Below, in pieces: positions 11,301 to 60,300 of a stretch of DNA of 64,000 nt. A program made the translations under genes and the position numbers. Each line of letters opens with the position of its first letter. The stretch's first letter is position 1. The notes under the pieces were generated by a model. The model had not been told where the DNA came from. It worked only from the letters and a program-made list of their open reading frames with translations, and searched no databases. The DNA comes from Aselliscus stoliczkanus (Eukaryota > Chordata > Mammalia > Chiroptera > Hipposideridae): contig CM066730.1 in the NCBI GenBank assembly GCA_033961575.1, positions 115,347,523 to 115,411,522 of the forward strand, given 5' to 3'.

Positions 11301-14300
11301 CCCCCAAGCCTGAGGAGGGCATCTAAGATTGATTAAACTGATGGGGCACAATTTTAGATGGATTTCCCCCAACCATTCTCCTCTCTTGACATTAGAACCA
11401 ATAGCATTATCTGGTATTACTGTGATGTTAGATTGGTATTTTAAAATGAAGTTTATAAATCCCAAGAAATTCCTGTTTGGCTCCTTGAAGCTGGTTTATT
11501 TCTTACTCAGCCCACAGTTACCACTATTTATTAACAATTTTTTCATTCTTGTGTAATGTAAATAATTTTGATCTCCCAGCACATAGTATGGTTCTTTACA
11601 CAGAACACAACTTTTGCATAAATGAGTTCTGGCAGCCATGGAGGAGAGGTATTAAAACATGTCAACTTCCAAATGTTCTTGATGTTATGTGTATTTTAAA
11701 TTGGCAACCATCTATTTTGAGATACATTTACTGAAAAAACCAACCAAACAAACAAACAAAAAAACCCCAAAACCAAAAAAACAAAACAAAAAGAACCCCA
11801 GAGAAGCACTATTTTGTGAGATAGCATCTATTATCTCTGCATTGGGACAAAATGAATGATTGGCAGTTCAAAGAAATCAAACTAAGGGAAATAGGAAGTT
11901 ACAGACTGAAGTAATTTAAGAAAATGTAAATGGTCATGCCTTGTTGCTTCAATTCTTTTCGAGCTCCCACTGTAGTAAGGCTTATCGTCATTGTACTCAT
12001 CAAACACTCCCCAGCGGAGATGGGCCCACTCGTGGACAAACAGTTTACCTGTGGGAAAATATTTCCAATACATGATCATAATTCAAGTGACAAAATTTGT
12101 CCTTCAAGTATTTTAAGAAATATTTTTTAAATAAAAAAACATATACTTATGTTTGAAATAGCTGCCAACATTTATATATTATATAGTATATTATCTTTTA
12201 ATTCTACAACATGTTAAATCAATGGAACATTTATTATGTATATGCTATGGACAGAATAGACTGGGCTTTGGGGTTTGGTTCTTGGGTGGCAAAAAGTCTT
12301 AGATATTGCAATGGTTTTTGGCTCTACAAAGCTCACTCCTACTAACAATATAAACAGATATGTAACATATTTGTGGTATTAAAATTTCATAAAGGTGCAA
12401 TTGAATGTTAAAAAATATGCCTGTAAACACTCCTTAGGGCATAGATAATGAAAAAAAAAAAAGGAAAAACACTGCTATAAACCATATGTAATGTTGGGGG
12501 TATCTAAATGAAATGATTAATTTATATTAGCACAAATAAGTATTAATTATATGAAAATAATTATTATCAATTTTATGTATTAAATACTGTGCTGCATACT
12601 AGGAAATATAAAGATGAGTAAGATATATATCTTTACTAGGACAAGCTTATAGAGAGGGAGTCAGAATTAAAAAAAAAATTCCTAGGCATTTCAAGGTAAA
12701 TAAAAGAATAAGGGTAAATCCACAGCTTATGAAATGCTTGAAGAAAAAAAAAAGCAGAATTTTTGTTTTATCAATATGAGGAAAAACTTCAAAGGAAATC
12801 GAAAAGGAGAAGTTGGAAAATAAAATAGCCTAGTCTTGCTGCCATGTGTGTTTCTCTCACTCATATTAACTCATGAGATCTGAAGGTGGGAAAATATCAG
12901 TATTATGCTAACGTTATGTATCTTTAAGTCCTTGTTACTGAAAATGGGTTCCTTGACTCAGCAGCATCAGTGTCACCTAGGAGCAAACAAGAAGTGCAGA
13001 ATCTTGGGCCCACTCTAGACCTCCTGAATCTGCATCGTAACACGATCCTAAGTGATTTCTATACGCATTAAAGTTTAAAAATGTTGGTTAAAGATTTCCT
13101 AGGCAGATGGAACCAGATTAATGATTGTGAAATTATATGTAAACTTCAACAGAGGAGGGAAAAACCTTCATACCAGCTACTGCAATAAGAGTTTGGTGAA
13201 CTTTAAGAAAATTTAAAACTGCCTGGTCTGTGGCTGCCTTGTTACTGGGGTCCATTCTCAGATTTGCTTCCTTCTCAACTCATGGCAGGCTGCCCTGCCT
13301 CCCATGTCCACCTTACTTTGCTAAGAAAGTAGATTTCAGGTCTCACTACACACACCAAAAAAAGCTAGCTGTGAGGAGATGATATGTTGGTTAGCTTGAC
13401 AATAATATCATGTCACTCTTCACTATGCCTATGTCTATCAAATCATCATGTTGTACATGTTAAATATATACCATTTGTATTGTAAGAAATGCAGCCCCTC
13501 TGACTTAGAATTCCATTTCCATCTATATGATTGTCTCAGTTTCCACTAGCCCAGTTCTCATTGTTAATAGCATTTCACTCTTTGTGTATGTGCTTTTGTG
13601 TGTGTACTTTTAATATCTACTAGGATGTCAGCCTCCAGCCACACAGCTTCTGCCAGGATGGTTTAAATAATCTTTCCAGTTATCTATTGTTATTGTTATC
13701 ATTTTTATTACAAAGTGCATATATTTTGAGGACTCTCTTCTTAACCTTGTTTTTTCCAAATGCCTCGTTGTTTTTACTTATTTATTTTTTGTTTTTTTGA
13801 GGGCAGTGTCACTGGCCCTGGTATGTAGGACCCGAACCGGGGCCGCTGGCTTCCCAAGCCAGCGCTTAACCACTGTGCCACTCGGCCGGCCCAGCCTCGT
13901 TGTTTTTAGAACATTGTTTTTCAGAATGTGAGTTTTCACAAACACATGTATTACATTAAGCTGTCATTTGTCAGATAGGGCTGAGGCGGGAGGTATGAGA
14001 AAAGACTAAGAGCTCAGGTGGGGACATTGGCTTTAAAAATTGGAAAATCCTTGTCTTCTAGTACAGGTAGAGGTGGGCATGAGTTCAGCAGTAGAGAGAA
14101 GAATATAGGGACTCTGTTTTCATAAATCAAGACATGTATTGATTGATAGGATTGAAAAAAGTAACTAGAGAACTTGAGAAAACTGGTAGAAGTTTTATAA
14201 CAGCTGCTATGAGGGATGAATGAGAAAGAGTTAAGAAGAGGCAAGTATGAACATTGTTGAGTAGCTTTGAGGGCTTTACTAAGTTTGGAAAACATGTTTT

Positions 14301-33668: not shown

Positions 33669-33698
33669 AGTGTGTATATATATTTAAAGCATTTTCTT

Positions 33699-33747
<49 letters not shown>
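33699..33747. repeat. (TTTA)n tail of the half-L1
   Basis: About twelve TTTA units on the plus strand, that is an AAAT-patterned poly(A) tail in element sense. Confidence 0.95.
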
Positions 33748-34512
33748 TTAGTTTTCAGTGTACAACACAATGCAATAGTTATACTCTTTACCCCCCAAAG
33801 TGAAAACCCCCCTCCCCCAGTTCGCCACCCCACTCCCCCCACATATCATACATATCCATCACAACTCCCCTGACTCGCCTCCACAGCATACTCCACATCC
33901 CGTGACCACCCACATATTCAGTTGCAGTTGGCATACAATACTATACAACATCAGCTTCAGGTGTACAGTGCAGTGATCAAGCCTCTATTTCATCCATGAA
34001 GTGGTCTCCCTAACAAGACATGTGACTATCTGACACGCCACAAAATTTTTACAACATTATTATATTCCCCGAACTGTGTTTCATATCCCTGTGGCAATAT
34101 TGTAGTTGTCTATTTATGCTGTCTAATCCCTTCCCCTTCCCCCCATCCCCCCCCAACTAGCAACCCTCAGTTTTTCCTCTACATCTATGAGTCTGTTTAC
34201 TTTGATCGTTCACTCAGTTCTTCAGACTCCACACACAAGTGAGATCACATGGTACCTGTCCTTCTCCGACTGACTTATTTCTCACAACATAATAGTCTCT
34301 TCACAACAATATCAATTACATTCCCAGAACTGCCCCCATAACCCTGCGGCAACATTGTAGTCCCACATATACTGTCCAAAACCTTCCCCCTCTCCCTCTT
34401 CCCCACTCCCTCCCAACCAGCAACCATCAGTTTTTCCTTTATATCTGCTTGATATGACATCAATCTTCTTAAATTGTCTCTCTGGGTTAGCTTGTTTACC
34501 CCTTTCTTTTGT

Positions 34513-35385
34513 TTAAAAAAGTCCTTTTAACATTTCTTGCAATGCTGGCTTGGTGATAATGAATTTCTTAAGCTTATTCTTTTCTGAGAAGCTCTTTATT
34601 TCTCCTTCAATTTTAAGTGATAGCCGTGCTGGATAGAGCAATCTTGGTTGTAGGCCTTTATTTTGTGTCACTTTGAGTATCTCCTGCCACTCCCTTCTGG
34701 CCTGCAGAGTTTCTGTAGACAAGTCAGCTGTTAGTCTAACAGGAGTTCCTTTGTATGTAACCTGCTGTCTTTCTCTTGCAGCCTCTAGGATTCTGTCTCT
34801 GTCTTTAACCTTTGCCATTTTCACTATGATGTGTCTTGGTGTGGACCTGTTTGGGTTCAGCTTGTTTGGAACCCTCTGCACTTCCTGGGCATGTATGTTG
34901 ATTTCCTTCACCAGGGTAGGGAAGTTTTCAGTCATTATTTTTTCAAATACCTTTTCAACCCCTTGCTGCTTCTCTTCTCCTTCTGGTATCCCTATGATTC
35001 GAAGGTGGTTGCGCTTCATCTTGTCCCATAGGGCTCTTAAACTATTTTCATTGTTTTTTATTCTTTGGTCTTTTTGCTGTGCCAACTGGGTGAGTTCTGC
35101 TATTTTATCTTCCAAATCGCTGATCCGCTCCTCTGCTTCATCTACTCTACTGGTGATTCCTTCGAGTGTATTCTTCATTTCAGTTATTGTATTCTTTAGT
35201 TCTAACAGGTTATTTTTTATGGTTTCCCTATCTTTCTTTATGTCCTCGCTAAGTTCCTTAAACATTCTTATCATCAGTGTTCTAAACTGTGTCTCTGAAA
35301 GGTTGGATCCCTCTGTTTCATTTGGTTCCATTTCTGGAGGTTTCTTCTGATCTTTTACTTGTGACATGTTTCTTTGTTTCTCCAT
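34513..35385 (-). CDS. LINE-1 ORF1 protein, intact (within the half-L1)
   Basis: RNA-binding chaperone of L1 particles. The open frame runs from 35463; I prefer the Met at 35385 (MEKQRN), giving 290 codons, near the usual ORF1p size. Visible: a charged N-terminus, a long heptad-like coiled coil (KNTLEGITSRVDEAEERISD and flanks) that would trimerise, an RRM (HLRIIGIPEGEE ... TPRHIIVKMAKVKD) and the C-terminal domain with RLTADLSTETLQARREWQ and the closing KPALQEML. No stop or frameshift. The related copy at 42523-43185 in the neighbouring L1 is broken. Starting at 35463 would add 26 unrelated residues. Confidence 0.9.
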   Translation of the reverse strand: MEKQRNMSQVKDQKKPPEMEPNETEGSNLSETQFRTLMIRMFKELSEDIKKDRETIKNNLLELKNTITEMKNTLEGITSRVDEAEERISDLEDKIAELTQLAQQKDQRIKNNENSLRALWDKMKRNHLRIIGIPEGEEKQQGVEKVFEKIMTENFPTLVKEINIHAQEVQRVPNKLNPNRSTPRHIIVKMAKVKDRDRILEAARERQQVTYKGTPVRLTADLSTETLQARREWQEILKVTQNKGLQPRLLYPARLSLKIEGEIKSFSEKNKLKKFIITKPALQEMLKGLF

Positions 35386-36506
35386 TCTGGCTGTCACTCT
35401 GGGATTGCTTTGATGTATTAGATAGATCACCAGGAGAGCCCTGGCTGGATCACGCAGGCACACAGCTCACGGCCCAACACTCCCAGGAGAACTCCCAGTC
35501 TCAGCCTGTCCCAATCAGCCGCTCGCAGATCAGGCCGAGCAGCCCGACAACCAATCACCAGCCTGGCAACTCTGCAAGCGCAGTGTGGAAAGCAGAGACC
35601 CAAGGCGGCTTGCGTGCTCCCGCGTCTCAGTGAGCAGCCTGTTGGAGTCGGATCACTCCCACTAGGCGTTTTCCTGGCAACACAGCACAAGCCGAGCGGA
35701 GGGTGGGGATCCGAGGTGGCTCGCGCTCCCGGGTCTCAGTGAGCCGCAGTAGGAGCTGGAGGGCACCGCCCTGTGTTTCCCTGGCAATGCAGTATAAGCC
35801 GGGCGGAGGGTGGGGATCCAAGGCTGCAGGCACGTGCACGCACGCACACAGGCACTCACACACTTCGCCAATTCCACCAGACCAATTAGGTCTCGGACCT
35901 GATCCTTCGTGGGAGGGCCCAAGCCCGACAAAATGGCGCCCTCCTTACACCACTCGCGTGCAAGCTCCGCACCACGGGAAAAACAATCCAAAAACCTCCA
36001 GCCTTTGCACCAAAGGTGCTCAGCTCAGTCCGTCCCCGCAGGCTCCCGGCTCACACAGCCACTCCCTCCATCAGGAACCAGGTAAGTGCTCACCGGCGAG
36101 CAAGCCCGGGCGCCGGCCCCACTGATTCTCCAGCCGCTCTTAGCCTCACCGAGCTGAGGAAAGAGAGTCCTTACTAATTTATTGCCGGCTATCTTAGAAC
36201 TCCTCTTCCCGGCAAAGGAGCTCTGGGCTGGTGAGCTTGGGGTGCGGCCGGAGGGTCTCTCCCCCAACCAGACAAGCTTCCCACGACTGGGGCTTCCCTC
36301 ACGGGGCTTGCCCTCTCTGGTCTCCGCCCGTCCTACCAGACCCGACGTGGCCTCCTCTTTAAGTTCTTTGTTTAGTGGTTCTGTTCCTCCAGTGTTCCGG
36401 GGACCTCCAGGGTTGAATGCTGTATAATTTGCTTGTAATTTTGGTGTGATCCTGGGAGGCAGTTAGCACAGCGTCTGTCTATTGCGCCATTTTACTGGAA
36501 GTCTCA
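35386..36506 (-). promoter_or_regulatory. L1 5' UTR / internal promoter with tandem monomers
   Basis: The most GC- and CpG-rich stretch of the window. It holds a 107 bp tandem repeat: GCCGAGCGGA at 35691 recurs as GCCGGGCGGA at 35798, each followed by GGGTGGGGATCC. An earlier, more diverged unit starts near 35585. Such repeated units act as promoter monomers in some rodent L1s; that role here is inferred. Confidence 0.75.
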
Positions 36507-36519
36507 AAAGCATTTTCTT

Positions 36520-37989: not shown

Positions 37990-38509
37990 TTTTTTAAACT
38001 TTTTTTTATTATTATTATTAGTTACAGATGTATAAAACAATGCAATAGTTATCTTTTTCACACCTAACAAAGTGATTACCCCTCCCCTATCCCTGTTCCC
38101 CCACCCCAGCTATCATACATATCTATTACAATTCCATTGACTCCATCCCCACACTATATTTCACATCCCATGACTATATATGTGTTAAATTATAGTTGAC
38201 ATCTAATATTATTCAGCGGTAGCTTCAGATGTACAGTGCAGTGGTCAGGCCTCTACATCGTCCATGAAGTGGCCTCCCTGACAAGACATGAGTCCTTCTG
38301 ATCCCCTAAGAAAAAATATTTACAGCCTTATTGATTATATTCCCTAAACTGTCTCTTCTGTCTCTGCAGTAATATTGTAGTTATCAGTTTGTGTTGCCTC
38401 ATCCCTTCCCCTTTTCCCTCATGCCCATCTCCATCCCCTCTAGCCCTCATCAGTTTTTCCTTTGTGTCTCTGAGACTATTTCTGTTTACATTGCTCATTT
38501 ATTTAGTTC

Positions 38510-42310
<3,801 letters not shown>

Positions 42311-42522
42311 GCCATTTTGTTATTTGTGTTCCTAGTCTTTCTTAGTTAGGTTGTTTTTCTCTTCTGCTTAAAGAAGCCGTTTTAACATTTCCTGCAAAGT
42401 TAGTTTGGTGGTAATGAATTCCCTTAACTTATTCTTTTCTGGAAAGCTCTTTATCTCTCCTTCAATTTTAAATGATAACCTTGCTGGATACAACCATCTG
42501 GGTTACAGGCCTTTATTTTTCA

Positions 42523-43185
42523 TCACTTTGAAACCTCCTGCCACTCCCTTCCGGCCTGCAGAGTTTCTGTAGAAAAGTCAGCTGATAATCTTATGGGGAT
42601 GCCCTTGTAAGTAACTTGCTGCCTTTCCCTTGCTGCTTTAAGGATTCTGTCTTTGTCCTTAACCCTTGCCATTTTCACTATAATGTGTCTTGGTGTGGGC
42701 CTGTTTGGGATCATCTTGGTTGGAACTCTCTGCACTTCCAGGGCTTGTATTTCACTGTCCTTTGCCAGGTTAGGGAAGTTTTCAGGCATTATTACTTCAA
42801 ATATGTTCTCAATCCCGTGTTCCCTCTCTTCTCCTTCTGGTATTCCAATGACCTAAAAGTTGTTGCATTTGATGTTGTCTCCCAGCTCTCTTAAACTATT
42901 TTCAATGTTTTTCATTCTTTTTTCTTTTTGTTGTTTCGCTTGGGTGATCTCTGCTATCTTGTATTCTAAGTCACTGATTCGATTTTCTGCTTCATCCAGT
43001 CTTCTAGTCATTCCATCAAGTTTGTTATTGAATTCAGTAATTGTGTTCTTAAGTTCTAGCTGGTTGCTTTTCATGATTTCTCTAGCCTTCTTTATATTTT
43101 CATTAATTTCCTTGAATATTATAATAATCAGTGTTCTGAACTCTGTCTCTGATAGGTTGTTTACTTCTATTTCCTCTAGTTCCAT
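42523..43185 (-). pseudogene. LINE-1 ORF1, broken
   Basis: Two pieces: the coiled-coil half (LDEAENRISDLEYKIAEITQ) at 43185-42853 and the RRM/C-terminal half (TPRHIIVKMARVKDKDRI, RLSADFSTETLQAGREWQ) at 42789-42523, separated by at least one stop. Clearly the same family as the intact ORF1 at 34513-35385. Confidence 0.9.
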
Positions 43186-43299
43186 TGATTCGGAAGTTTC
43201 TTCTATTCTTTTATTTGGGTTGTGTTTCTTTGTCTCCCCATTCTGGCTTACTCTTTGTGCTTGCTTTGATATAACAGATAGATCCCCTAGGTCTCTCAG

Positions 43300-44755
43300 T
43301 CTTTTCTGGGTGGACTTATGTGGTATGTGTCTTTTATATTTGAATTACTCAGTCTCCCTATTCTCCTGTGCATGTATTTATCTAAGGTGTTCCTTGTGTT
43401 GTGTGTCCTCATCTGTTGAAGTTTTAGTTTTAATTACTTTTGGCTTGTCAGTATGTGGGATTGACTCCCAGACTGATTAGCTGTGAGTATCAGCAGTGTC
43501 CGCAGTTTATGAGCTGCTGTGAGAGGGTTGACCCCTCTGATGAGGCTTGGACCCTATGAGCCCTAGTACCTGTAGCAACTTCCTTTTGGGTGTGACTCTT
43601 GTATGTCAAATGCAGAAATGCTCTGGTTTTATCTAAAATTGGCCTCCGTGTATGATAATTCTTGTGTCTCCTTGTTTTGGCCCAGCTGCAGAGTGATTTT
43701 AGAGCAAAACAGATCAACAAGAACAACCACTGCAGCCACCAAAGGAAACAAAATGCTCTCATATGTAAAAAAAAAAACCAACCATCAACCTACAGTCAAT
43801 TTGTACAGAAATATCAAACATACAAAGGAAGAAAACAAACAGAAACAAAACAACAACCACACACACAAAAAGAACAGAAGAGGAAACACAATAAAATATA
43901 ATATCATAAAATAAAAAAATAGGATAAATATGAGAAACCAAATAGCTATACCGAAAAGTAAAATTAAAATAAAAAATAAAAAAATAAAAAAGTAAAAACA
44001 ATAAATAAATGAAATAAAATAAAATTTGCAGAAAAAAGGAAAGGAGGAAAAGTATAGCAGTGAGAAGAATGAATAAAAGTAGGGAGAAAGTAAGGGTGGG
44101 AAAAAAAGAAGAAGAAAAGAAAGAAAAAGAATATATATATATATATATATATATATGTCTACACACTCATATATATGGACATATATTCACCTATATATAC
44201 CCATATATATGCCTATATTAAAAACTGGGAAATGATAATAATGAAATAGCAATAAAAACCAAAAACAACCAAAATAAGCAACCAATAAGGGGGAAAAAAA
44301 CAAAAAAACAGAAAAAACCACCCCTTGCCGGTCTTGGCTAAAGTCCACCAAGCTCTCTTCAGTTTGTCCTCTGCTGTACGAAACTTCCTGTGCGTATTGT
44401 GGGAACAGAGTAGGCCACCTGACGCCTAGCATGATCCTGGCACTGCAGGTTTGCTGTACTTGAGTGTGGTTGTGACGTGTGATTGGTAGTTTTTACAAAG
44501 TCACTGCCATTTTGCTTTCACCTGTCCCAAGGCAGGCTGCACCCCCAAAGCCTCAATGAGTGTCTTTGGGCACCCTTTCCGTTGACAGCGATCTGCTCTC
44601 TGAAGCTCGGTGCCTCAGCAGCCGCAGGTGCGGGCTGCACCTCACGCATCTCGCCGCCTTCTTTCCCTACTTTCCCGGCCTGCCCACCTTCCAGCAATCG
44701 TTGTGTGAGACTCTTAGTTGCTCTGTGTGATGAGTAGATGTCCCACTTTTCTTAT
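43300..44755 (-). promoter_or_regulatory. LINE-1 5' UTR with a strongly strand-biased block
   Basis: From about 43760 to 44330 the plus strand is overwhelmingly A-rich (pyrimidine-rich in L1 sense), with a TA run at 44130-44156. GC-rich sequence follows at 44500-44720. Confidence 0.55.
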
Positions 44756-46930: not shown

Positions 46931-48493
46931 CCTCCTGCTCCCTGTCAGCCCAAATCTCTCCTATTTGGCCTTGTGTATGCTTTATTGCTACTGCTGGTTT
47001 GGTTATTGTTTATTTTTTGTTTTTAATTTTTTTAATATTTTTAAAAATTAAAATTTAGCTAACATACAATATTATATTAGTTTCAGGTGTACAGCATAGT
47101 TATTGAACATTTATATACCTAAAGAAGTAATCACTAGAAGTCCAGCAACTATCTGACACCATACCACGCTAATATTGTTGACTACGTTCCTATGCTGGAC
47201 TTTACATCCCCATGACTTACTTGTTTTATACCTAGAAATTTCAACCTCTTATTCCCCTTCACCTTTTTTCCCCCTTTAAATAATTTTCAATTACAGTTGA
47301 CTGTATTCAATACTATTTGATATTAATTTTAGGTGTACAGCATAGTGGTTAGACATTTATATAATTTAAGTGATCCCCCTGACTACTCTAGTACTCCCTG
47401 GCACTATACATACTTATTACATATTATTGACTATATTCCCTATGCTTTGCTTGCCCTATGCATGCCCTACAGCATGACTATTTCATAACTATCAATTTGT
47501 ATTTCTTAATTCCTTCACTCTTTACACCCTGTTCCCTAACCCCCTTCCCATCTATCACCCTGATAAATCTAGTCCCCATCTGATACCAAACATAGTTATT
47601 ACAATATTATTGACCATAATCCTTATGCTATACCTACATCCCCATGATTACTGTGTAACAACCAAATTGTACTTCTTAATCCCTTCCTCTTTTTCACTCA
47701 CCCCCAAATCCCCTCCCATCTGGCAACCATCAATATGTTCTCTGTATCTATGAGTGTTTATATTTCATTTGTTTGTTTTATTCTTTAGATTCCACTTATA
47801 AATGAAATCATATGTGTCTTTCTCTGTCTTACTACACTCATCAAAATGTGCTCCAGGGTCCATCAATGTTGTTGCAGATAGCAAGATTTCATTTTTTTTT
47901 TATGGCTGAGTAATATTGTATACATATACCACCTCTTCTTTATCCATTCAGAGACACCTAGGTTGCCTTCATATCTTGGCTACTGTAAACAAAGCTGCAA
48001 TTAACACATGGATGCACCCATCCCCTTGAAGTGGTGTTTGGGTTTCTTTGGATAAATACCCAGAGTGGGATTACTGGGTCCTTCTTTGTCTCTTGTTAAA
48101 GCCTTTGTTTTAAAGTCTGTTTTGTCTGATATAAGTATTGCTACTCCAGCTTTTAATTTTGTTTTGTTTTCATTTTCATGAAATATCTTTTTCCATCCCT
48201 TTACTTTCCAGTCTGTGTGTGTCTTTCTAACTGAAGTGAGTCTCTTGTAGGCAGCATATGTAAGGGCTTTGTTTTCTTACCATTCAACCACCCTCTTTCT
48301 TTTGATTGGAGCATTTAATCTATTTACATTTAAAGTAGTTGTTGATAGATATGTAGTTATTGCCATTTTATTATTCATGTTTTTGATCTTTTTTATTTCA
48401 TCTTAAAGAAGTACCTCTAACATTCCTTGTAATACTGGTTTGGTGGTGATGTTGAGCTCCTTTAGCTTCTTCTTTTCTGGGAAGCTCTTTATC

Positions 48494-48643
48494 CTTTTTT
48501 TTTTTTTTTTTAGCTGAGCCATCCTGCCACCTCAATGGCAGCTCAATGGCAACTCAGCTCAGGCTGGCATCGAACCACCATTGCTCAGAGCTCAGCTCAC
48601 ACTCTTGAGCAAGCTCTTAACTAACTGAGCCACTCGGCTGGCC
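48494..48643 (-). mobile_element. tRNA-derived SINE, long-type head, truncated (copy G)
   Basis: A T-run tail, AGCTGAGCCATCCTGCCACC, and head GAGCCACTCGGCTGGCCC. Perfect 17 bp duplication CTGGGAAGCTCTTTATC at 48477-48493 and 48644-48660, inside the older L1. Confidence 0.92.
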
Positions 48644-50668
48644 CTGGGAAGCTCTTTATCTGTCCTTTGATTTTAAATGATAGCTTTGCTGGGTGGAGTA
48701 ATCTTGATTATAGGTTCTTGCTTTTCATCTCTTTCAATATTTTGTGCCAATCTTTTCTGGTATGCAGTTTCTTTTAAGAATTCTGCTGACATACTTATGG
48801 GAACTCAAATGATATAAGTAACTGCTTTACTTTTGTTCCTTTAAAATTCTCTGTTTTTAAACTTTGGCATTTTAATTATGATGTGTCTAGGTGTGGGCCT
48901 CTTTGGGTTTATCTTGTTTACTTCCTGTACTTCCTGGGCTTGAATATCCATTTCTTCGAACAGATTAGGGAAGTTTTATGTCATTATTTCTTCAAATAGA
49001 TTTTCAGTTCCTTGCTCTCTGTCTTTTTCTGATACACCTATTGTGCAAATATTGGTACAATTGATGTTGCTCCAGAGAGCCCTTAAATAGTCCTCATTTT
49101 TTAAAAGTCTTTTTGTTGTTCTGATTGGGTGTTTTCTGGCACCTTATCTTCTAAATCACTGATTTAATCCTCTGTTCCATCTAATCTACTGTTGATTCCC
49201 TCTAATGTATTATTCATTTCAGTTATTGTAGTCTTTGTTTCTGAATAGTTATTTTTTTAAGTTTTCTATCTCCATTTTTACTTTTCCTATTTCTTCTTGA
49301 AGTTCTCCCTGAGATCATTGAGCAAACCGTATAATCAGCGTTTTGAATTCTGCATCTGGTACATTGCTTGTGTCTATTTTGTTTAGTTCTTTTTCTGGAG
49401 CTTTGTTCTGTTCTTTTTTGGGGGGTACGTTTGTCTCTTTGTTTGACTGCCTCCCTGTGTTTCTTTTTATGTATTATTTGGGGCCGCTATGCCTCTTGGT
49501 CTTAGTAGAGTGGCCTTATATAGTAGGTGTCCTATGGGGCTTGATGGCACAGTCTCCCTGGTCACCTGAGCCAGGTGCTCCAGATATGTCCCTTTTGTGG
49601 GTTGTGGGTGCCCTCCTGTTGTAGTAGATCCTTAATTGCTGTTTCCATGTCAATGGAAGGGATTGACCTTCAGGCAGATTGGTCCTGAGGACTGGCTGTG
49701 ACTACAGTGGAGAAGCTGTTGTGCAGGGGCTGACCCTATACAGCAGGATTCTCTTTAGAAGGGCTCTGCCTGCCCAGTCTGCTCTTTGTGTGAGTCATCC
49801 TTGGAGGCAGCTGGATGATGCTCTGGCTTGGTCCAAACTTGGTCATTGGGCATGCCCAGCCCTGGAGCCTACTGGGAGGAGCCCCACTGCATGCCAAGTT
49901 CAGCCACAGTCTGTGCCCTGCCTGGGGCCACCTGGCATGAGCCACAAAGCAATCTGCTGATGGCTGCCTCCCCTGTTGGCCTTGGAGGTGCCTCAAGAGT
50001 CCAAGCTGCAAACCAAGGCTAGCTGTGGCTAGAGCCAGGCTTAGGGCTGCTCAGTCAAAGGTACAGGACATGCCAAAGCCAAATGCTGTTTGGGTTTTGT
50101 GAACCTTTGAGAGATTTTATGAAAGTCTGCATCATGAGCCAAGGCAGGCCGTTTGTATAGAAAAACCACTGGAAGTGGCTTTGGGTATGCCTGGAAGTTT
50201 GTGGGGTGAACAAATAGTGTTGGCCATGTTGATGGAGACTCAGATTGGCAGTCACCTGTGTGTGCATGCTGGGAGCAAGGAAGTCTTAATAGAGGAACAA
50301 TGGCTTCCACCAGCTCCTCCCTCGTAGGGAAAACTGCTCCTCCAGCCCTCACTCTGAAGCCAGACAACTCAGTTACTCTCTATATGTCCCTGGCACCTTT
50401 CAAGCTGCTGCCCCAGTGCTGGAGCTCAGAGCAAGTGAGTCCCTCCATGCGAGTAAGTCCATGTTTGGGCCCTTTAAGAGGAGCACCTGGGCCTCCAGCT
50501 GCCCTCCATCTCACTCAGCCATAGTCTCTGCTTATTTTCACAATCAGAAGTTACGGGGACTTTTCTCCTCAGCACAGAAACCCTGGGCTAGGGAGCCTGG
50601 CATGGGACTGGGACCCCCTTGCTCCTCCAAGGAGGATCTCTGCAGCCAAGACACCCCTCCCTATTTTT

Positions 50669-57362: not shown

Positions 57363-60300
57363 CTGGAAAAAAAAAAAGCAGTGACTTATAATTCTCAAGC
57401 CTTCAAGAAGTTTTGAAAGGCTGTTAGCAACATCATCCCATAAAGTTCTAATGATTAAATAACTGATGGTCCATTTTTACAAGCGTTAGTATCTCTTTAC
57501 ATCCTTGTTTGTGTATCTCAACAGAGTGATAAATGTAAAACTGTAGGCTTGGTCAGTATTTCTGGGCATGGCACTTGGCTAGGGGAGGAGGTGGTTTAAT
57601 TACTGCTTGCTATTTAATTATGTATAGAGGAGTTTTCAGTATGGGTGCCTTTCAAATCTGAAGTTCATACAGATCACCCAGAGATCTTAAAATGCCAATT
57701 CCGGTTCAGCAGGTCTGGGGCGGGGCCTGAGGCTCCATAGTCTAAGCAGCATTCCTGCGATGCCCATGCAGCAGTTCACAGACTGTACCTGGAGAGGTTT
57801 CTTCCAAAGGACAGCTTTGCTCCATAGATAACTATGCTCTATTCCCAAACCTCTGCAGGACTCATTACTAAAAATGGGCTTTACTAAAGGATACTTTGGC
57901 AAGGAAAAAACTGGAGGATTGTCTTTTCCTGGTTGAAACCTCTTATACCTAAAATACGCCAGTTCTTCAGATTCAAAACCTCTCATTTTAAGATCTTTTT
58001 AAAAAATTTTTTTATGGGGATAGTATTGGTTAATAATACTATATAAATTTCAGGTGTACAACATTATACAGTAATACCTTGGTTTGTGACTATAATTCGT
58101 TCTGGAAACAAACTACTTGTATTGCAAGACATCGCTTGTTTACTAAGTTAAAATGTATTAGAAATGTTTGCTTGTCTTGCAGAACACTCGCAAACCAAGT
58201 TACTCACAATCCAAGGTTTTACTGTAATTCAATATTTGTATGCTCTACGGCATGCTTCCCACCAAAAGTTTAGTTTCCATCCATTACCATATATCCGACC
58301 CCATTTCCCATTTACCCTCTCCCAAACCCCTTCATTTCAGAGGACATTCAAGATCCCTCCTGCCCCTGCCCTCCACATGCAGCACAAAACGCCTGCCTCA
58401 TGCCCTCCTGCACCCCTGCTTAGCTGCTCAGCTCCTCTGCAGGTTCCACACCACGTTGAGCTTACCTCTCCCATGGTCATAGTCATCCCCAGGAGCCGTC
58501 CATGTCAGATTAATAAGACTGTGTCCTTGTATTTTTGCCTTCAGGTCGGTGATTTGACAAGGTGGGAAGAGATCAGGTATGGGAGGCTTTGGGACACTGG
58601 AGACCACAAAGGAGCCTCCCGAGGATGTCCTGCTGAAACACACTTGCTTGCCATGAAGGTCATCCTCACTGACTTCAGGTCTCGGTGGGTTCCATTTTAC
58701 TTCACCTACATTAAAACTTTCTTCAATATATGGGAAGCAGCACCACAAAATGGGCACACTTCCTTCTGTTTTATTATTGGATTGCCCTCTTCCTACTCTT
58801 TCCTTCCGTTTTTCCCCTCCCACTTACAAAATTCATTTTAACGATTGGGTATAAAAATCTCAAATCCGTTTGCATCAGAAGGAAAAAGGCAAAGAGAGAA
58901 CCACAGTTCTTTATCTCACAGACATTTCCTGGCTATTTACTGGAATAACTTTCATAAATTATTTTCATGACATTTGTCCTGAAATTGTTTCTTTCCCATC
59001 CTGATCTTACTCTTCCACAACGTTGGTTTAAATGCTATCTCTACTTTAAACCTTCTCAGACTACCTCAAGAAGTCTCTTTCCTCTAAATAATATTGTGGA
59101 TTTCATTATCTTTTCTATTTATTTGATAGTTAATCATCTGGACCTTTAAGCATTGCCTTACTTATTTATTCTGCACATTTTTTTCTCTTTCTCCACATTT
59201 GTATTTTATCTTTCTTATTAGACTACAGTTTCTTATAAAATGTTTTGTGTAAGGTATTCTCAGATTTTATGCTTTTCAAAGACTTCTGATTTTTCTCAAT
59301 GAATGCATGGAAACCTAGTTCTTGTAGCAAATTTATTTTCTCATAAACTACTTCTTTAGCCCTTAAAATTTTTGCCTGTAAAGACAGAATGATCTTCATA
59401 CTTTCATACCCATTAATCTGGTCTTGGACAACAAAGATGAAGTGGGTACGTGTGCAGGTTCAGGGGTAATATTAGACTTACCAATAGAGAGTTGGTGTGA
59501 AGGATCATCAAGGTATGGAAGGGAGAACATGGCTTCCCAATACCATAACCACTATTAGTTATGAAGGCCAATATCTTATATAACCTCTGTTTCCCCATCT
59601 TTAAAATGGGATAGTTAGGAAAATCGGATGTACTAATGTAAGTAACAGACTAAGCATAGGCTTGATAGAGCCATTAAACCAGTCTCCTCCTGCCTTCTCC
59701 CCCTAACTCAAAAAGAAAAACAAATGGGAATAAAATAAGCTGAAATATTTGAAAGAGCTTTGTAAGCAATGGTGTTTTTTAAAGCATTTTTTTTCTATAT
59801 ACTTTTTTTTTTTGAGGGCAGTGTCACTGGCCCTCATATGTGGGACCCGAACCGGGGCCACTGGCTTCCCAAGCCAGCGCTTAGCCACCGCGCCACTTGG
59901 CCGGCCCTCCTATGATACTTCTGCATGAGGAGATACCACATGTCTTAGAAACCTCACTTTATGGAGCATACACCCAAGTAAACAGCACAGCGGTGAGCTT
60001 TTAGGAGGAGCTATTCTTACGCACAGCAGTGCTAGGAAAAAAGCTGCCCAGGACAGAGTGGAAATTGATGGAAAACAGGTCCTAGAAACCATTAGGACTC
60101 AGCATTGGTCCCAATTCCAGCTCTAGTCTGGAGAAAGTGTTTACTACCAAGAGTGGTATGGGACTGTTTCTTGGAGTGTAATTTTCCCACATGCTTGCAT
60201 GTGGGCTCAGCGTGCTGGCTGGTGTTGGATTCATCTACTGTTCTTCCTGGTCTAAGCAGGAAGAGAGAGGAAGACATGGAGACAGTGACCTTATGGTGAT

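What the first reader, a model, noticed from the sequence alone, without database searches (positions are those of the whole stretch)
33699..36506. Recent ORF1-only LINE-1 (half-L1) with intact ORF1 and perfect target-site duplication
Seen: full 5' UTR, uninterrupted ORF1, no endonuclease or reverse transcriptase, 3' UTR, AAAT tail and an exact 13 bp duplication. Known: HAL1 elements are ORF1-only L1 derivatives that mobilise in trans and are mostly ancient. Inference: this may be a young, independently arisen half-L1 lineage in this host, which keeps ORF1p while borrowing ORF2p.
Basis: partly seen in the sequence, partly recalled or inferred. Interest (0 to 1): 0.78.

Follow-up and report, generated by a model that had tools for sequence, protein, structure and literature searches.

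The report
Young ORF1-only LINE-1 family in bat
This is one recent copy of a numerous family of jumping genes that kept only the first of the two LINE-1 proteins, probably spread by borrowing the second from ordinary LINE-1s, and show signs of preserving the protein they kept; the kind is known from other mammals, and this family was not checked against repeat libraries.

Summary
On the minus strand, 36506 to 33699, lies an L1-derived element with an open ORF1 (290 codons), no ORF2, an AAAT tail and an exact 13-bp target-site duplication. The ORF2-deletion junction is spanned by 58 of 59 copies examined (the other is 5'-truncated there). Duplications of 11 bp or more flank 33 of 40 copies, against 3 of 386 with swapped flanks. 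One copy (L016) carries the 3' flank of another (L038) behind its tail and has its own duplication: an ORF1-only locus was itself transcribed and copied. ORF1 is intact in 17 of 36 copies picked without regard to ORF1; variants shared between copies are poorer in amino-acid changes (23N:19S) than private ones (80N:27S plus 9 stops; Fisher p 0.016 one-sided). So this is a recently mobile half-L1 (HAL1) family, not a local deletion. The junction also keeps a 27-bp endonuclease island and a duplicated 3'-UTR piece. Its 3' end is closer to young L1s of this genome than an older L1's is. New member of a known kind; repeat libraries were not available.

The parts
36507..36519 (.). target-site duplication, copy at the element's 5' end
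   Evidence: exact 13/13 match with 33686-33698
35386..36506 (-). 5' UTR (1121 bp), CpG-rich, presumed promoter
   Evidence: CpG o/e 0.59; 40 of 40 scored genome places at 96-100%; no match in the ~1.3 kb upstream of ORF1 of young L1 L070 or the ~0.7 kb of the window's own L1
35562..35823 (-). two overlapping units of a ~107-bp repeat inside the 5' UTR (35673-35823 and 35562-35716), 73% alike
   Evidence: self-BLAST
34513..35385 (-). ORF1, 290 codons, L1 ORF1p (trimer, RRM-like, C-terminal domains)
   Evidence: intact in 17 of 36 copies incl. this one
34476..34512 (-). inter-ORF spacer left after ORF1
   Evidence: aligned with the window's other L1 to element position 2031
34448..34475 (-). 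island of about 27 bp from the ORF2 endonuclease region
   Evidence: element 2034-2059 matches the window's L1 (88%, E 0.001) and 2032-2058 matches L070 (89%, E 4e-4); it tiles between its neighbours
34315..34446 (-). piece A: upstream copy of a 3'-UTR segment
   Evidence: 73-78% identical to piece B; the segment is single in young L1s L050 and L070
34225..34300 (-). last ~75 bp of ORF2 coding sequence
   Evidence: element 2207 onwards aligns with the end of the ORF2 frame of L070
34059..34186 (-). piece B: second copy of the segment, in its normal place in the 3' UTR
33757..34224 (-). 3' UTR with G-rich tracts
   Evidence: ORF2 end plus 3' UTR differs by 16% (ungapped) from young L1 L070 and 25% from the window's older L1; G runs
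33699..33756 (-). A-rich tail, (AAAT)n with 11.8 units
   Evidence: TRF; other copies carry A-rich tails of different make-up
33686..33698 (.). target-site duplication, copy at the element's 3' end

Best explanation
The element is a recent, full-length insertion of a young, multi-copy half-L1 (HAL1) family in a bat genome. Shown: an L1-derived unit with its own CpG-rich 5' UTR, ORF1 and an L1-type 3' end, whose ORF2 was lost by rearrangement in an ancestor; the rearranged unit then multiplied by L1-type retroposition (A-rich tails, target-site duplications at A-rich sites); in one case an ORF1-only locus (L038) was transcribed from about its own 5' end, through its tail into the flank, and copied elsewhere (L016). 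Supported by small-number tests: selection kept ORF1 open in the source lineage. Inferred: the transcript is translated into ORF1p, which coats its own RNA in cis; ORF2p comes in trans from full-length L1s, of which the genome holds young copies; target-primed reverse transcription from the A-rich tail makes the new copy. Also inferred: the lineage is mosaic, the 3' ends of HAL1 and of young L1s sharing a source that the older L1 lacks.
For: Host-genome search with the 3' part: 40 of 40 scored copies (of 1634 first-look candidates) match all 401 bases at 98-100%. Of the 39 others fetched, 32 start within the first 14 bases of the element. Junction spanned in 58 of 59 copies, incl. 19 of 19 picked by ORF1 alone. 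TSDs of 11 bp or more in 33 of 40 against 3 of 386 with swapped flanks. L016 carries at least 564 bp of the 3' flank of L038 at 99.3%, then poly(A) and a 15-bp duplication of its own target; its 5' flank is unrelated to L038's beyond a few bases next to the element. ORF1 intact in 17 of 36. N:S private 80:27 (+9 stops), shared 23:19 (0 stops), p 0.016 one-sided, 0.029 two-sided; tree branches terminal 86:32 (+8 stops), internal 17:16, p 0.019 one-sided. dN/dS 0.24 against ORF1 of young L1 L070. Young L1s: L049 and L070 98.3% alike, ORF2 open for 1065 codons in L049.
Against: No expression or mobilisation data. The copies examined are those nearest to the window copy, so the family's age range and size are unknown. 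The selection test rests on 42 shared changes, and the first 20 loci alone showed no contrast (36N:23S private, 9N:5S shared). ORF1p differs from 75 database relatives (of 120 listed, of 1718 hits) at 6 of 51 nearly invariant positions, equal to the most deviant of them (0-6), though the columns were chosen without it. Seven of 40 copies showed no TSD of 11 bp by the finder (L009, L016, L027, L029, L032, L039, L047); L016 has one beyond its transduced flank. L1 ORF2p is thought to prefer its own RNA (recalled), and no fully intact L1 was confirmed: L070's ORF2 is broken twice, L049 is 5'-truncated with a frame change near its end.
Confidence: 0.9

Rival explanations
1. A single L1 insertion lost its ORF2 here by a local deletion after insertion.
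For: L1 fragments with internal ORF2 deletions do occur nearby: window 47679-49736 has one with a different junction.
Against: The same junction is found in 58 of 59 copies on many contigs, 33 of 40 with separate target-site duplications.
Confidence: 0.01
2. The family is a passive passenger of L1: ORF1 has no role and is often open only because the copies are young.
For: The nearest copies to this one are 1.3-1.5% away, so many frames would be open by youth alone; ORF1p has 6 changes at 51 nearly invariant positions; no contrast in the first 20 loci.
Against: Shared and internal-branch changes are poorer in amino-acid changes and hold no stops, private ones are not; dN/dS 0.24 against the host's young L1 ORF1 over a synonymous distance of about 0.6, though part of that path may predate the loss of ORF2.
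Confidence: 0.09
3. Assembly artefact: collapse or mis-joining made the ORF2-less copies.
For: Repeats are prone to assembly error.
Against: The junction recurs at dozens of places on large contigs with different flanks, different 5'-truncation points and different tails.
Confidence: 0.01

Closest known systems
HAL1 (half-L1) of mammals, incl. guinea-pig HAL1s (Bao and Jurka 2010; not held, known here through citing passages)
   Same: L1-derived, ORF1 kept, ORF2 lost, TSDs and A-rich tail; in guinea pig ORF1 coding capacity kept about 29-44 Myr (passage in PMC3627910); several independent origins (passage in PMC5753468).
   Different: Different host; junction with an endonuclease island and a duplicated 3'-UTR piece; 3' end shared with the host's young L1s.
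Young L1 of the same genome (L070, L049/L050)
   Same: ORF1 73% identical in protein; ORF2 end plus 3' UTR 84% identical ungapped.
   Different: Has ORF2 and an unrelated 5' UTR; a single copy of the A/B segment.
SINEs and other L1-dependent non-autonomous elements (general knowledge)
   Same: Need ORF2p in trans, A-rich tail, TSDs.
   Different: This one encodes a protein and appears to keep it under selection.
L1TD1, the domesticated ORF1-derived gene (PMC4161310: abstract in listing and passages)
   Same: ORF1-type domains without ORF2.
   Different: L1TD1 is a host gene; this is a dispersed repeat family.

Membership tests
HAL1 (half-L1) | derived from L1, encodes ORF1p | tested here: met
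HAL1 (half-L1) | no ORF2 (endonuclease, reverse transcriptase) | tested here: met
   only a ~27-bp island and the last ~75 bp remain
HAL1 (half-L1) | a multi-copy family sharing the deletion | tested here: met
   58 of 59 copies; 40 of 40 scored for the 3' part
HAL1 (half-L1) | target-site duplications and A-rich tail | tested here: met
   33 of 40 against 3 of 386 with swapped flanks; tails
HAL1 (half-L1) | the ORF1-only unit is itself the template for new copies | tested here: met
   one pair: L038 to L016 with its 3' flank
HAL1 (half-L1) | ORF1 coding capacity maintained | tested here: met
   17 of 36 intact; N:S tests; small numbers
HAL1 (half-L1) | mobilised by L1 ORF2p in trans | not testable with these tools
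   inferred from TSDs and A-rich sites
a named HAL1 subfamily of Repbase/Dfam | high identity to a library consensus | not tested

The most novel reading that the evidence does not exclude
The ORF1-only lineage is not a dead-end derivative but a long-lived partner of the host's L1: its ORF1 diverged from L1 ORF1 long ago and stayed functional, while the 3' ends of HAL1 and of the now young L1s were exchanged later, so that non-autonomous and autonomous elements share one evolving 3' end and perhaps feed modules to each other.
Probability: 0.3. Interest if true: 0.62.

Novelty: new member of a known kind. Interest (0 to 1): 0.47.

Why it matters
Why an element that must borrow its reverse transcriptase should keep its own ORF1 is a question about what ORF1p does in cis. 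A young, numerous family with many intact ORF1 copies, a traceable parent-offspring pair and young L1s in the same genome makes that testable by population genetics and by a reporter assay. The 3' end shared with young L1s also bears on how L1 modules are exchanged.

Tried and rejected
Local post-insertion deletion: rejected. Splicing of a full-length L1 RNA as the origin of the deletion: by eye the donor positions in the aligned L1 do not read GT (alignment); not tested further. Divergence of pieces A and B as a clock for the loss of ORF2: given up, because against L070 the changes are lopsided (25 private to A, 4 to B, 17 shared), so A may come from another L1 subfamily. A search of viral contigs for places that encode ORF1 relatives found none. 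Copy number was not obtained: the genome search scores only the best candidates, and the junction-pattern search did not complete. Older members of the family, and L1s with everything intact, were not reached. Host identity is only inferred: the tRNA-type SINE with a GGCCGGCC head suggests from memory a rhinolophoid bat; the protein hit of highest identity is from Rhinolophus ferrumequinum (70% over 81% of the query), while the best E-values are from Cnephaeus nilssonii, 51-56%. Literature: searches 'HAL1 + LINE-1 + bat', 'HAL1 + LINE-1 + Myotis' and 'HAL1 + Hipposideros' gave 3, 2 and 0 papers; the HAL1 passages shown to me of those three papers do not describe a bat HAL1. Bao and Jurka 2010 is not held (one search was a wrong DOI of mine).

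Full report
What is there. The element runs on the minus strand from 36506 to 33699. Exact 13-bp duplications lie at 33686-33698 and 36507-36519. ORF1 is 34513-35385 minus, 290 codons, with the three L1 ORF1p domains in Pfam and human ORF1p 2ykp as the best solved structure by sequence, E 4e-62. The 5' UTR is CpG-rich (58 CpG, o/e 0.59, against 0.18 for the rest of the window) and holds a ~107-bp internal repeat. The tail is 11.8 units of AAAT. The first bases resemble, from memory, the start of human L1 with its YY1 site; this was not tested.

Anatomy of the junction. A decayed, near full-length L1 in the same window (about 38001-44015 minus) served as a yardstick, later joined by a young L1 from the same genome (L070, fetched into its 3' UTR). 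Along the element: ORF1 and spacer to position 2031; about 27 bp of the ORF2 endonuclease region (88-89% identity, E 0.001 and 4e-4); a 3'-UTR piece A at 2061-2192; from 2207 the last ~75 bp of ORF2, then the ordinary 3' UTR with piece B at 2321-2448. A and B are 73-78% identical depending on the alignment; the young L1s hold the segment once. So ORF2 seems to have been lost in at least two steps, with a duplication of the ORF2-end/3'-UTR segment.

The family. The host genome became searchable: 2,187,126,926 bases in 146 contigs. The 3' part gave 40 scored copies of 1634 first-look candidates, 40 of 40 covering all 401 bases at 98-100%. Regions around the 39 other than the window's own were fetched. 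Of these 39, 32 start within the first 14 bases of the element. Target-site duplications of at least 11 bp were found in 33 of 40 copies including the window's, against 3 of 386 when 3' flanks were swapped between loci; all 33 begin with A/G-rich bases and 18 are preceded by T, though A's of the tail can lengthen an apparent duplication. The seven without are L009, L016, L027, L029, L032, L039 and L047. The ORF1 protein gave 135 scored copies of 77,945 candidates, at 97-100% identity, 127 of 135 without a stop; this list is ranked by protein score and so favours intact frames. Of these 135, 19 were fetched over the junction only and 19 of 19 have it at 95-99.6% identity. In all, 58 of 59 copies span the junction; L027 is 5'-truncated at it. 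The 5' UTR gave 40 scored places of 7299 candidates, all at 96-100%; by my reading of the lists 26 of the 40 adjoin places already seen, and the other 14 were not looked at.

A parent and its offspring. When flanks of the 40 copies were compared with each other, one pair stood out: L016 (contig C10) and L038 (contig C13) share their 3' flank at 99.3%. The shared flank runs for at least 564 bp, to the end of what was fetched of L038; in L016 it ends in a poly(A) run, followed by a 15-bp duplication of the sequence at L016's 5' edge. L016 also starts with a few bases that lie just upstream of L038's element, while their 5' flanks are otherwise unrelated. L038 has its own 16-bp target-site duplication close round the element. 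This is a 3' transduction: the ORF1-only locus L038 was transcribed from about its own 5' end, through its tail into the flank, and the RNA was copied into C10. The ORF1 lesions of the two differ (a stop at codon 129 in L016, one frameshift in L038), so none is seen to predate the jump. Other flank matches are shorter or weaker (71-94% identity, up to 297 bp) and look like common interspersed repeats; they were not followed.

Age. Among 30 full-length copies in one piece (window included), pairwise differences are 0.4-4.5%, median 2.2%; the window copy is 1.28% from its nearest relative and has 13 private substitutions, 0.47%. At a mammalian neutral rate of about 2.2e-9 per site and year (recalled) that is about 2 million years or less. 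The copies are the nearest ones, so the family's full age range was not measured.

ORF1 under selection. The 36 copies with a full ORF1 (of 40; L014, L027, L032 and L047 dropped) were picked by their 3' part, not by ORF1. Of these, 17 of 36 are intact. Private variants are 80 nonsynonymous, 27 synonymous and 9 stops; variants shared by two or more copies are 23, 19 and 0 (counts; Fisher p 0.016 one-sided, 0.029 two-sided). On the tree of the 30 full-length copies, terminal branches carry 86N, 32S and 8 stops, internal branches 17N, 16S and none (p 0.019 one-sided). Against the mutational opportunity this is a ratio of 0.8-1.1 for private and 0.3-0.5 for shared changes, depending on the transition weight. 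Against ORF1 of the young L1 L070, dN 0.143, dS 0.602, ratio 0.24. Against this reading: 6 of 51 nearly invariant ORF1p positions differ, as many as in the most deviant of 75 database relatives, and the first 20 loci alone showed no contrast.

Partner L1s and exchange of 3' ends. L049 and L070 are L1s 98.3% alike over 3.8 kb; L049 is 5'-truncated with 1065 open codons of ORF2, L070 has an intact ORF1 (291 codons) and an ORF2 broken twice. A supply of ORF2p in the recent past is therefore likely; no fully intact L1 was confirmed. For ORF1, L070 and the window's old L1 group together (133 sites, against 32 for HAL1 with L070 and 21 for HAL1 with the old L1). For the 3' end the element groups with L070 (78 sites against 34 and 35). 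L070 and the old L1 differ by 7% in ORF1 and ORF2 but by 25% in the 3' end, the change lying near the start of the 3' UTR. So the 3' UTRs of the young L1s and of the HAL1 seem to come from a common source that the older L1 lacks. Only two L1 lineages were compared.

Comparison with what is known. HAL1s are L1 derivatives that encode ORF1p only and arose several times in mammals (PMC5753468, passages); they depend on full-length L1s and number about 2,100 in human (PMC5322556, passages); in guinea pig ORF1 coding capacity lasted some 29-44 Myr, from which the authors infer that ORF1p in cis and ORF2p in trans are both needed (PMC3627910, passages). These passages cite Bao and Jurka 2010, which is not held. 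The present family meets the HAL1 features that could be tested. What it adds is a further host, a very young age, an unusual junction, many intact copies, a parent-offspring pair, a sign of selection once private changes are set apart, and the 3' end shared with young L1s.

Verdict. Interest 0.47.

Noticed in passing
L038 (G000:C13) and L016 (G000:C10): 3' transduction linking two HAL1 copies: L016 carries at least 564 bp of L038's 3' flank plus poly(A) and its own 15-bp target-site duplication.
   Followed up: yes
window 47679-49736 (minus): An older L1 fragment with its own ORF2-internal deletion at about 48079 (a different junction from the HAL1's), interrupted by a tRNA-type SINE at about 48488-48644.
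   Followed up: partly
ORF1 stop codon in HAL1 copies, e.g. L017, L030, L039: 8 of 36 copies read AAA in place of the ORF1 stop TAA, scattered over the tree; the frame would run on about 66 codons through the ORF2 island and piece A. Several further copies have open frames of 382-396. (My note says 9+; 8 is the count.)
   Followed up: partly
window 38001-44015 (minus): Decayed L1 whose ORF1 and ORF2 are 7% from young L1 L070 but whose 3' end is 25% away: a 3'-UTR replacement in this L1 lineage.
   Followed up: partly
G000: Other groups of open L1 ORF1s (frames near 293, 334 and 363 codons) besides the HAL1 group (317); one of the 293 group is L070. Several L1 lineages may have been active recently.
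   Followed up: no
window 13772-13892, 59787-59907 and others: Short tRNA-type SINE family with a GGCCGGCC head, several copies in the window.
   Followed up: no
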